A stretch of DNA of 64,000 nt from Burkholderia sp. HI2500 (lineage in GTDB: Bacteria; Pseudomonadota; Gammaproteobacteria; Burkholderiales; Burkholderiaceae), in NCBI RefSeq assembly GCF_002223055.1, contig NZ_NKFL01000004.1:1054001-1118000 (forward strand), in the 5' to 3' direction. The notes below the pieces were generated by a model. That model was not told the origin of the DNA. It was given only the letters and a program-made list of their open reading frames with translations, and did not search any database. Both the position numbers and the translations under genes were made by a program. Each line of letters opens with the position of its first letter. Position 1 is the first letter of the stretch. This document shows positions 37,035-39,566 of this stretch, piece after piece.

Positions 37035-37783
37035 ACGGCAACGCGATCGCGCTGCACGGCGTGGTGCAGCGCTTCGGCGCGCAGACGGTGCTCGACGGCG
37101 TCGAACTGAGCATCGCGGCCGGCGAGCGTCATGCGCTGATCGGGCCGAACGGCGCGGGCAAGTCGACGCTGTTCGGCGTGATCGCCGGTGCGGTGCGGCC
37201 CACGCGCGGGCGCGTCGTGCTGCACGGCGTCGAGCTGCGCGGGCGCGGGCCGGTCGTCGCGAGCCGGCTCGGCATCGGCCGCAGTTTCCAGCAGACGAGC
37301 GCGTTCGCGCGGCTGACCGTGTTCGACAACCTGCGCTGCGCGGCGCTGCATGCGCCGGCTGAGCGGCGGCGCTGGTGGAACCGGCTGCGCGAAGCGGCGT
37401 CGGTCGATCTCGCGGCCGCTCGCGTGCTGCACGACATCGGCCTCGATGCGCACCGCGACACGCTGGCCGGCGAACTGAGCTATGCGGAACAGCGCGCGCT
37501 CGATCTCGGGATCGCACTCGCGAGCGGCGCGCGCACGCTGCTGCTCGACGAGCCGACGGCCGGGATGAGCCGCGCGCAGGCGGCGCGGATGATCGCGCTG
37601 ATTCGCGCGACGACGCAGGGGCGCACGGTCCTGCTGATCGAACACGACATGGATGCGGTGTTCGGTTTCGCCGAACGCATCACGGTGCTCGTGCGCGGCA
37701 CGGTGGTCGCGACCGGCGCGCCCGATGCGATCCGCGCCGATCCGGCCGTGCGGGCCGGCTATCTGGGCGAGGGCGGCCCATGA
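37031..37783 (+). CDS. livG: Branched-chain amino-acid-type ABC transporter ATPase (LivG)
   Basis: A 250-residue ATPase. Walker A is intact: GPNGAGKST with K44. The signature region is LSYAEQRALDLGIAL (LivG-type variant of LSGGQ), Walker B is TLLLDEP, and the H-loop is LLIEHDMD. It hydrolyses ATP to drive the LivHM permease. It starts with ATG 37031 in an ATGA overlap with livM and is followed by livF with another ATGA overlap. Confidence 0.9.
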   Translation: MNGNAIALHGVVQRFGAQTVLDGVELSIAAGERHALIGPNGAGKSTLFGVIAGAVRPTRGRVVLHGVELRGRGPVVASRLGIGRSFQQTSAFARLTVFDNLRCAALHAPAERRRWWNRLREAASVDLAAARVLHDIGLDAHRDTLAGELSYAEQRALDLGIALASGARTLLLDEPTAGMSRAQAARMIALIRATTQGRTVLLIEHDMDAVFGFAERITVLVRGTVVATGAPDAIRADPAVRAGYLGEGGP

Positions 37784-38484
37784 GCGCGCTGCTCGACATT
37801 CGCGACCTGCGCGCATGGTACGGGCTGCAACCCGTGCTCGACGGCGTCGATCTCGCGCTGGCGCCAGGCGAGACGCTCGCGCTGCTCGGCCGCAACGGCT
37901 CGGGGCGCTCGACGCTCGCGAAGGCCGTGATGGGGCTCGTGCGCACGGCCGGCTCGGTGCGCATCGGCGGCGCCGAATGCGTGGGGGCGCGCACGTTCGA
38001 GATCGCGCGGCGCGGCGTTGCTTACGTCGCCGAAAGCCGCGACGTGTTTCCGCTGCTGACGGTACGCGACAACCTGCGGCTCGGGCTGCGCGGCGTCAGC
38101 GGCGTGGCCGAACGCACGGCGCTCGAACGGCTGTTCGACCGCTTTCCGTTGCTGGCCGCGCGCGCGGACGTGAAAGCGGGGCGGCTGTCGGGCGGCGAGC
38201 AGCAGGTGCTCGCGCTGGTGCGGGCGCTGGCCGGCCGCCCGCGCGTGCTGATCGTCGACGAACCGGCCGAAGGGCTCGCGCCGCTCGCCGTCGACGAAGT
38301 CGGCGCGTGCCTCGCCGCGCTGCAGGCCGACGGTGTCGCGATCGTGCTGATCGAGCAGCGGCTGCAGTTCGCGCCGCGGCTCGCGCGGCGCGTCGCGGTC
38401 ATGGGGCGCGGGCGGATCGTCTATGACGGCGCGCTCGACGGCCTGGGCGGCGAGGTCGCGAACGCGTGGCTGAGCGCCGGCTGA
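37780..38484 (+). CDS. livF: Branched-chain amino-acid-type ABC transporter ATPase (LivF) with Arg in Walker A
   Basis: A 234-residue ATPase. The phosphate-binding loop reads GRNGSGRST at 37-45: the Walker A lysine is replaced by Arg43 (codon CGC). The signature LSGGEQQ, Walker B VLIVDEP with Glu, and H-loop region are otherwise typical. Lys-to-Arg usually strongly reduces ATP hydrolysis, so this subunit may be a degenerate site while LivG (intact) does the work. No periplasmic binding protein gene adjoins this four-gene set. The ATG at 37780 overlaps the livG stop. Confidence 0.87.
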   Translation: MSALLDIRDLRAWYGLQPVLDGVDLALAPGETLALLGRNGSGRSTLAKAVMGLVRTAGSVRIGGAECVGARTFEIARRGVAYVAESRDVFPLLTVRDNLRLGLRGVSGVAERTALERLFDRFPLLAARADVKAGRLSGGEQQVLALVRALAGRPRVLIVDEPAEGLAPLAVDEVGACLAALQADGVAIVLIEQRLQFAPRLARRVAVMGRGRIVYDGALDGLGGEVANAWLSAG

Positions 38485-38590
38485 CGGCGCGCGAGCGATT
38501 GTTCGGAAAACTCCGCCAGTCAATTCGCGTCGAGCCGCTTTATCGCCGCAGTACCGCACAGTAAATTGCCAGTCATACCGGTTGCATATC

Positions 38591-38766
38591 GACGCAACGA
38601 TGCAACGACGCAACGACGCAACGACGCAACGACGCAACGACGCAACGACGCAACGACGCAACGACGCAACGACGCAACGACGCAACGACGCAACGACGCA
38701 ACGACGCAACGACGCAACGACGCAACGACGCAACGACGCAACGACGCAACGACGCAACGACGCAAC
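38591..38766. repeat. Octanucleotide tandem array (GACGCAAC)x22 upstream of a dehydrogenase
   Basis: Twenty-two perfect-phase copies of an 8-bp unit, GACGCAAC, covering 176 bases; all are identical except unit 2 (38599-38606), which is GATGCAAC and so contains an ATG. The array fills half of the 335-base gap 38485-38819 between livF and the SDR gene and ends 53 bases before the SDR start. A unit of 8 bases is not a multiple of 3, and none of the six frames has a stop inside it. Tandem octamers are prone to slipped-strand copy-number change, so it is a candidate phase-variation or strain-typing locus. The rest of the gap, 38485-38590, holds nothing else recognisable. Confidence 0.95.
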
Positions 38767-38819
38767 AGCGCGGCAGCCGGCACCCTCCATCGAAAGTCTT
38801 CTGACTGAGGAATGAAATC

Positions 38820-39566
38820 ATGAGCAAGCTGGCAAACAAGGTCGCGATCGTCACGGGCGGATCGAAGGGCATCGGCGCGGCGATCGCGAAGGCACTGGCA
38901 GCGGAAGGCGCGTCGGTGGTCGTCAACTACGCGAGCAGCAAGGCGGGCGCCGATGCGGTCGTAAGCGCGATCGTCGAAGCCGGCGGCCGCGCGGTCGCGG
39001 TTGGCGGCGACGTGTCGAAGGCAGCCGACGCGCAGCGCATCGTCGATACCGCGATCGACACGTACGGGCGTCTGGACGTGCTCGTCAACAATTCCGGCGT
39101 GTACGAATTCGCGCCGATCGAAGCGATCACCGAAGAGCACTACCGCCGGCAGTTCGACACGAACGTGTTCGGCGTGCTGCTGACCACGCAGGCCGCGGTC
39201 AAGCACCTCGGCGAAGGCGCGAGCATCATCAACATCAGCTCGGTGGTGACCAGCATCACGCCGCCCGCCAGCGCCGTGTACAGCGGCACCAAGGGCGCGG
39301 TCGACGCGATCACCGGCGTGCTCGCGCTCGAACTCGCGCCGCGCAAGATCCGCGTGAACGCGATCAACCCGGGGATGGTCGTGACCGAAGGCACGCACAG
39401 CGCGGGCATCATCGGTTCCGATCTCGAAGCGCAGGTGCTCGGCCAGACGCCGCTCGGCCGCCTCGGCGAGCCGGACGACATCGCGTCGGTGGCCGTGTTC
39501 CTCGCGTCGGACGATGCACGCTGGATGACCGGCGAGCATCTCGTCGTGAGCGGCGGGTTGAACTGA
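38820..39566 (+). CDS. Short-chain dehydrogenase/reductase (FabG/3-oxoacyl-type)
   Basis: A 248-residue SDR. The NAD(P) loop is TGGSKGIG (residues 12-19), the NNSG motif is at ~90-93, and the catalytic Ser140/141-Tyr154-Lys158 triad is in NISSVV...YSGTK. N36-Y-A-S following the second strand suggests NADPH preference. Such enzymes oxidise or reduce alcohols/ketones; the substrate is unknown. A GAGGA ribosome-binding site lies 6 bases before the ATG. The 8-bp array (38591-38766) sits directly upstream, so expression may vary with repeat number. Confidence 0.9.
   Translation: MSKLANKVAIVTGGSKGIGAAIAKALAAEGASVVVNYASSKAGADAVVSAIVEAGGRAVAVGGDVSKAADAQRIVDTAIDTYGRLDVLVNNSGVYEFAPIEAITEEHYRRQFDTNVFGVLLTTQAAVKHLGEGASIINISSVVTSITPPASAVYSGTKGAVDAITGVLALELAPRKIRVNAINPGMVVTEGTHSAGIIGSDLEAQVLGQTPLGRLGEPDDIASVAVFLASDDARWMTGEHLVVSGGLN

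What the first reader, a model, noticed from the sequence alone, without database searches (positions are those of the whole stretch)
38591..38766. Twenty-two-copy octanucleotide array 53 bases upstream of an SDR gene
Seen directly: (GACGCAAC)x22, one variant unit (GATGCAAC), no interruption. Established: tandem repeats of this type change copy number by slipped-strand mispairing and drive phase variation when they lie in promoters or coding regions. Inference: since 8 is not a multiple of 3 and the array abuts the SDR start region, copy changes could switch or tune the dehydrogenase, and possibly alter promoter geometry. Long perfect octamer arrays are unusual in such GC-rich chromosomes.
Basis: partly seen in the sequence, partly recalled or inferred. 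Interest (0 to 1): 0.75.

Follow-up and report, generated by a model that had tools for sequence, protein, structure and literature searches.

The report
Octamer satellite in dehydrogenase gene leader
A short eight-letter DNA word stands 22 times in a row just before a sugar-dehydrogenase-like gene of a Burkholderia; it is a genuine and probably unstable repeat, similar ones are found in other genomes of the genus, and it cannot switch the gene by shifting its reading frame.

Summary
In detail: (GACGCAAC)x22, unit 2 = GATGCAAC, window 38591-38766, ending 53 bases before the ATG of an SDR gene. Comparison with 49 orthologous leaders shows what it is. A promoter-like pair (TTTATC-17-TAAATT) and a ribosome site, both largely conserved, flank the array, so it lies in the inferred 5' leader, between arms of a conserved inverted repeat (CCGG...CCGG, 19-52 bases apart in 42 relatives, 195 here). 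The sister on the locus tree and two other members of its 10-row clade carry one unit there; the other six carry none. So the array is private and probably recent. Frame switching is excluded: stops in all three frames lie between array and ATG. Promoter-spacing change is unlikely. Predicted ribosome-site accessibility is ordinary (rank 31 of 50). Octamer arrays with a CAACG/GCAAC core occur in 20 of 65 Burkholderia genomes; this genome has a second one (20.8 copies) between convergent genes, with other copy numbers or units at that site in four other species. Best reading: a slippage-made VNTR in a metabolic gene's leader, probably near-neutral; graded tuning is possible but untested. No strain-level copy-number data could be obtained.

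The parts
38591..38766 (+). Octanucleotide array (GACGCAAC)x22; unit 2 (38599-38606) is GATGCAAC
38496..38527 (+). Conserved block CGATTGTTCGG...CAATTCG upstream of the promoter-like pair; possible operator (inference)
   Evidence: GATTGTTCG and CAATTCG present upstream of GCTTTAT(C/T)G in 50 of 50 Burkholderia leaders examined (the presence of CAATTCG was also how the leaders were located); a stricter version of the block in 14 of 54 more distant loci
38539..38544 (+). Promoter-like -35 TTTATC (inferred)
   Evidence: TANATT follows after exactly 17 bases in 36 of 50 leaders, TACATT or AAGATT after 18 in 5; the other 9 have a weaker hexamer or none. A loose CTTTAT...TANA(T/G)T match with variable spacing in 35 of 54 more distant loci. 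The strict sigma-70 scan finds no site
38562..38567 (+). Promoter-like -10 TAAATT (inferred); the array starts 23 bases after its end
38578..38585 (+). Left arm CCGGTTGC of the leader inverted repeat
38773..38780 (+). Right arm GCAGCCGG of the same inverted repeat; CCGG cores are 195 bases apart here, 19-52 in 42 relatives
   Evidence: predicted pairing
38600..38815 (+). Open frame created by the ATG of the variant unit: 71 codons, TGA at 38813-38815, 4 bases before the SDR ATG; no ribosome site seen in front of it; coding role not claimed
   Evidence: sequence
38807..38812 (+). Ribosome-binding site GAGGAA of the SDR gene (inferred)
   Evidence: GAGGAA within 20 bases of the ATG in 46 of 50 leaders
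38820..39566 (+). SDR gene, 248 aa, glucose 1-dehydrogenase-like
   Evidence: NCBIfam NF005559 (242 bits, cut-off 215); Pfam PF13561 and PF00106; PDB 4mow, 'Glucose 1-dehydrogenase', E 5.1e-146
37780..38484 (+). Upstream gene: ABC transporter ATP-binding subunit; best NCBIfam resemblance UrtE, below its cut-off
   Evidence: PF00005; UrtE 199.7 bits vs cut-off 285.8; ends read

Best explanation
The array is a lineage-private microsatellite (octamer VNTR) that grew by replication slippage from a single ancestral unit lying between the arms of a conserved inverted repeat in the 5' leader of an SDR gene. Promoter-like elements and ribosome site lie outside it and look intact, so copy-number changes lengthen or shorten the leader in 8-base steps without changing the SDR reading frame or the promoter spacing. 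The most likely consequence is near-neutral length variation, at most a modest graded effect on the leader RNA. Shown: position, one-unit state in three relatives, frame closure, conserved flanks, similar arrays at other sites. Inferred: slippage as the process, transcription start upstream of the array, instability among strains, near-neutrality.
For: One-unit state in the relatives with the most similar leaders: L012/G011 GACTCAAC, L027/G018 GACGCAAC, L029/G019 GACGTAAC, with similar flanks; G011 is the sister on the locus tree (98/84). Promoter-like pair and ribosome site outside the array. All three frames closed before the ATG. Mean unpaired probability around the ATG of the natural leader is 0.516 against a median of 0.507, rank 31 of 50. 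At a second, convergent-gene site of the same genome an octamer array has 20.8 perfect copies, and at that site G018, G049, G008 and G055 have 17.4, 15.4, 14.8 and 3.2, the last three of other units; 25 of the 30 loci looked at have 2.0 copies or fewer. In B. pseudomallei most arrays have 6-9 bp units and lie between genes, and the tested VNTR loci mutate at above 1e-5 per locus per generation (PMC1853098, passages and two sections).
Against: No second strain of this species could be examined, so instability itself is not shown. Six of the nine other members of the 10-row clade show no recognisable unit, so the ancestral one-unit state is inferred from three genomes. Near-neutrality rests on predicted RNA structure and on analogy. 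The leader is the longest of 50 (286 vs at most 144 bases from the -35 region to ATG), and known 5'-leader repeats do affect expression (hmw1A).
Confidence: 0.6

Rival explanations
1. Graded tuning: leader length set by copy number changes SDR transcript level (elongation, stability, or closure of the leader hairpin), as a slow volume control under selection.
For: The array sits in the inferred 5' leader, as the heptamer tract of H. influenzae hmw1A does in the P2 transcript, where more repeats lower expression (PMC8262952, passages). uspA2 AGAT tracts upstream of the gene go with up to 3.37-fold mRNA differences (PMC7302503, passages). The left arm CCGGTTGC could pair with the right arm or with GCAAC in the units (inference; sequence).
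Against: Predicted ribosome-site access is ordinary; the gene looks metabolic, not surface-exposed; the 49 other leaders lack a long array. The closest octamer parallel, M. catarrhalis gor (GACTGTTT), varied between strains (2-17 units in five genomes) but not within the two strains tested, and the authors write that it does not appear to be phase variable, while asking for tests of a 17-unit strain.
Confidence: 0.27
2. Upstream-ORF switch: the ATG of the variant unit opens a frame through the array; copy number decides where that frame ends relative to the SDR ribosome site (TGA at 38802, 38806 or 38813), modulating translational coupling.
For: The 71-codon frame ends 4 bases before the SDR ATG; three stops in three frames at different distances.
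Against: No ribosome-binding sequence seen in front of the ATG at 38600; the start depends on the one variant unit.
Confidence: 0.05
3. The copy number, or part of it, is an assembly artefact of a repeat in a 27-contig draft.
For: Draft assembly; another genome (G013) has a related array at contig ends.
Against: The array is inside a 2.16 Mb contig, 176 bp can be spanned by single reads (general knowledge), and a perfect run with one variant near its edge is typical of real tracts.
Confidence: 0.06
4. The array is a stack of binding sites for a regulator or a structured regulatory RNA.
For: RNA fold z = -3.05 against dinucleotide shuffles.
Against: No Rfam match up to E = 1 in 38400-38900; the RNA centroid contains no pairs inside the 22 units; DNA fold z = +1.70; covariation of the leader stems is not above shuffles; the unit is not conserved in relatives.
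Confidence: 0.02

Closest known systems
Burkholderia pseudomallei VNTR/SSR loci (U'Ren et al. 2007, PMC1853098)
   Same: Same genus, units mostly 6-9 bp, mostly intergenic; used for MLVA typing.
   Different: Most of those loci have 4-10 units; this one has 22, at a site with a long array in 1 of 50 orthologous leaders; variation among strains not measured here.
Haemophilus influenzae hmw1A heptamer tract (PMC8262952)
   Same: Short repeats inside the 5' leader of the transcript from the working promoter.
   Different: There the tract overlaps the -10 box and an expression effect is shown, in an adhesin gene; here the -10-like box ends 23 bases before the array, the gene looks metabolic and no effect is shown.
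Moraxella catarrhalis gor octamer tract GACTGTTT (PMC7302503)
   Same: Octamer array just upstream (25 bp) of an oxidoreductase gene, 2-17 units among five genomes.
   Different: Different unit and organism; no within-strain variation was detected in the two strains tested there.
Octamer arrays between a LysR-type gene and a convergent oxidoreductase gene, G000:C6 and relatives
   Same: Same genome, period 8, GCAAC core, beside a GC-rich inverted repeat.
   Different: Between the 3' ends of convergent genes; arrays of 3 or more copies at that site in 5 of 30 loci, with different units.

Membership tests
Simple sequence repeat / VNTR locus | Head-to-tail short units with near-perfect identity | tested here: met
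   22 units, 21 identical
Simple sequence repeat / VNTR locus | Copy number differs between related genomes at the same site | tested here: met
   22 units here; one unit in L012, L027, L029, none in the six other members of the clade; short degenerate octamers in L018, L019, L023, L028, L139. Between species only
Simple sequence repeat / VNTR locus | Copy number differs among isolates of one species | not testable with these tools
   One genome per species held; no scan of metagenome contigs was available
Phase-variable contingency locus | Repeat in the coding frame so that unit changes shift the frame | tested here: not met
   In-frame stop upstream and stops in all three frames before the ATG
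Phase-variable contingency locus | Repeat inside the promoter so that unit changes alter -35/-10 spacing | tested here: inconclusive
   Conserved promoter-like pair lies wholly upstream, but the transcription start is not mapped and the sigma-70 scan found nothing
Phase-variable contingency locus | Copy number changes expression | not testable with these tools
   Needs expression data
Structured regulatory RNA / riboswitch | Match to a known family or compensatory base changes | tested here: not met
   No Rfam match; 1 pair with a change on both sides against a shuffled mean of 1.5
Glucose 1-dehydrogenase-like SDR (the gene) | NCBIfam NF005559 above curated cut-off | tested here: met
   242 bits vs 215; substrate not tested

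The most novel reading that the evidence does not exclude
Burkholderia keeps making octamer satellites at the same few intergenic spots, next to or inside conserved inverted repeats: the period of 8 is kept while the unit sequence turns over between species. The SDR leader would be one such spot, and the array a recent burst that makes leader length an evolvable trait of a metabolic gene found across the genus.
Probability: 0.2. Interest if true: 0.5.

Novelty: new member of a known kind. Interest (0 to 1): 0.3.

Why it matters
As it stands it gives a candidate typing marker for its Burkholderia lineage and a clear natural case of a microsatellite born, most likely, from one unit inside a conserved leader. 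It would matter more if length alleles changed dehydrogenase output, since that would put a metabolic gene under repeat-based tuning, or if the recurrence of period-8 arrays beside hairpins proved to be a general mutational rule of the genus.

Tried and rejected
Frame switching of the SDR: rejected. Promoter-spacing change: not supported. Antisense ORF through the array (37759-38790, minus): no Pfam match, so not taken as a gene. Known RNA family: none in 38400-38900. Conserved RNA hairpin by covariation: not supported; the outer arms pair in 94.3% of cells but hardly vary; cells paired 86.9% against 87.3% in shuffles and at most 58.6% when slid; covariation score 0.082 against 0.087 in shuffles. 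A DNA site therefore cannot be told from an RNA stem. Occluded ribosome site: not supported. A first attempt at arm distances failed (2 of 50 measured) and was replaced. One search missed the start in L032; one search recovered all 50. Papers: none of the titles listed is about this array, and one search listed nothing; two searches looked for parallels only; the library is open-access only. Not examined: 3 orthologues (G041, G047, G048) of the 53 with at least 84% identity were not fetched; the covariation alignment used 42 of 50 leaders (left out: the window, two duplicates, five divergent leaders); at the second site the 30 best-matching loci were looked at; a link of octamer arrays with hairpins was seen at two sites and not tested statistically. 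The search patterns fix the period at 8, so say nothing about other periods.

Full report
What is there. The window is part of an 8.26 Mb genome in 27 contigs. The best-matching named loci of its SDR gene are Burkholderia, most of them cepacia complex species (complex membership recalled). At 38591-38766 stand 22 octamers, 21 GACGCAAC and one GATGCAAC in second place, 53 bases before the ATG of a 248-aa SDR. The SDR fits the glucose 1-dehydrogenase subfamily (NF005559, 242 vs 215 bits) and its best match among solved structures is 4mow, named glucose 1-dehydrogenase (E 5.1e-146). Upstream lies an ABC transporter ATP-binding gene.

Is it exceptional? In 864 kb (the 64 kb window and 40 stretches of 20 kb of the same contig) only 3 perfect arrays of period 5-12 with at least 3 copies and 24 bp exist, and this is by far the longest (20.6 perfect copies against 4.0 and 3.4). 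Three perfect units in tandem were found in 2 of 65 genus genomes: here, and in G012, where three units stand just before the ATG of two similar genes, one of which I scanned and which encodes TPR repeats. Octamer arrays built on a related core are less rare: five CAACG cores spaced by 3 in 12 of 65 genomes, five GCAAC cores in 14 of 65, together 20 of 65. These patterns fix the period at 8 and say nothing about other periods.

Where it sits. I read the leaders of 50 of the 53 genomes with an SDR at least 84% identical (loci). GATTGTTCG and CAATTCG precede GCTTTAT(C/T)G in 50 of 50 (CAATTCG was also used to find the leaders). TANATT follows TTTAT(C/T) after exactly 17 bases in 36 of 50, TACATT or AAGATT after 18 in 5, and the other 9 have a weaker hexamer or none. 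A loose version of the pair occurs in 35 of 54 more distant loci. This is the best candidate promoter, though the strict sigma-70 scan reports none. In the window its -10-like box ends 23 bases before the array, and the ribosome site GAGGAA starts 40 bases after it; GAGGAA is near the ATG in 46 of 50 leaders. The array is therefore inferred to be transcribed as 5' leader. The leader (from -35 region to ATG) is 286 bases here and 107-144 in the other 49.

The conserved inverted repeat. In 42 aligned leaders CCGG...CCGG arms stand 19-52 bases apart between promoter and ribosome site; in the window they are 195 apart and the array fills the gap. Outer-stem cells pair in 94.3%, but the columns hardly vary and compensatory changes do not exceed shuffles (1 pair with a change on both sides, shuffled mean 1.5; covariation score 0.082 against 0.087). 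So the arms are conserved, but whether they act as RNA hairpin or DNA site is open. The widely varying distance argues against a rigid dimer operator (inference).

Origin. In the leaders most like the window's, L012 (G011), L027 (G018) and L029 (G019), the same place holds one unit: GACTCAAC, GACGCAAC, GACGTAAC. G011 is the sister on a 50-row locus tree (98/84). The other six members of that 10-row clade (L014, L015, L016, L017, L031, L142) show no unit within one mismatch. The economical reading is one ancestral unit in the subgroup and an expansion in this lineage. Elsewhere in the tree, short degenerate octamers occur at the same spot (L018, L019, L023, L028, L139); at least 7 of 50 leaders, the window included, show lag-8 similarity reached by no more than 1 of 500 base shuffles (22 of 50 rows printed). 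L019 even holds GACGCAAC GATGCAAC GACGCA, the same order as the first units here.

A second site. The same genome has (CACGGCAA)x20.8 on contig C6 between a LysR-type gene (PF00126, PF03466) and a convergent pyridine-nucleotide oxidoreductase gene (PF07992), beside a GGCCCGG...CCGGGCC hairpin sequence. At that site G018 has 17.4 copies of the same unit, and G049 15.4, G008 14.8 and G055 3.2 copies of other units; 25 of the 30 loci looked at have at most 2.0. A third site with shared flanks carries octamers in G004, G013 and G026 (seen by eye). So period 8 recurs, the unit changes, and one long array of this genome lies where it precedes no gene.

Mechanism. Frame switching is out: the SDR frame is closed 5 codons upstream (253 vs 248) and TGA at 38802, 38806 and 38813 closes all three frames. 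Promoter-spacing change is unlikely for the reasons above. Predicted accessibility around the ATG is 0.516, median 0.507, rank 31 of 50 natural leaders. RNA folding of the leader gives z = -3.05 but a centroid without pairs inside the 22 units; DNA gives z = +1.70. The variant unit brings an ATG whose 71-codon frame ends 4 bases before the SDR start, but nothing like a ribosome site precedes it. What remains is leader length: near-neutral, or a graded effect as in hmw1A, where more repeats in the leader of the working promoter go with lower expression (PMC8262952, passages).

Known context. B. pseudomallei arrays mostly have 6-9 bp units and lie between genes, and tested loci mutate at more than 1e-5 per locus per generation (PMC1853098: passages, section 6 and section 10 part 1). 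In M. catarrhalis an octamer upstream of gor differs between strains but did not vary within the two strains tested (PMC7302503, passages). PMC12287342 and PMC3352902 were seen in passages only and added no parallel to this array.

Limits. No second strain of this species, no expression data and no mapped start were available. The near-neutral reading is the most economical, not a proven one.

Noticed in passing
L249:1995-2160 (G000:C6, about 1430894-1431059): Second octamer array of the same genome, 20.8 perfect copies of CACGGCAA, between a LysR-type gene and a convergent oxidoreductase gene beside a GC-rich hairpin sequence; the same site holds octamer arrays in G018, G008, G049 and G055.
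   Followed up: partly
L039:1501-1524 and L040:1501-1524 (G012): Three units of GACGCAAC just before the ATG of two similar genes about 2.6 kb apart; the first encodes TPR repeats, the second was not scanned.
   Followed up: partly
L196, L198, L199 (G004, G013, G026): Octamer arrays with similar flanks and different units or copy numbers in three genomes, a possible third recurring site.
   Followed up: no
window 38496-38567: Strongly conserved block (CGATTGTTCGG...CAATTCG...CTTTATC...TAAATT) in front of this SDR gene across Burkholderia and, in part, Paraburkholderia, Caballeronia and Trinickia; looks like a regulated promoter whose regulator is unknown.
   Followed up: partly
L205:1497 onward (G052): An octamer array (GGCTCAAC)x6 followed at once by a long run of ACGGC pentamers.
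   Followed up: no
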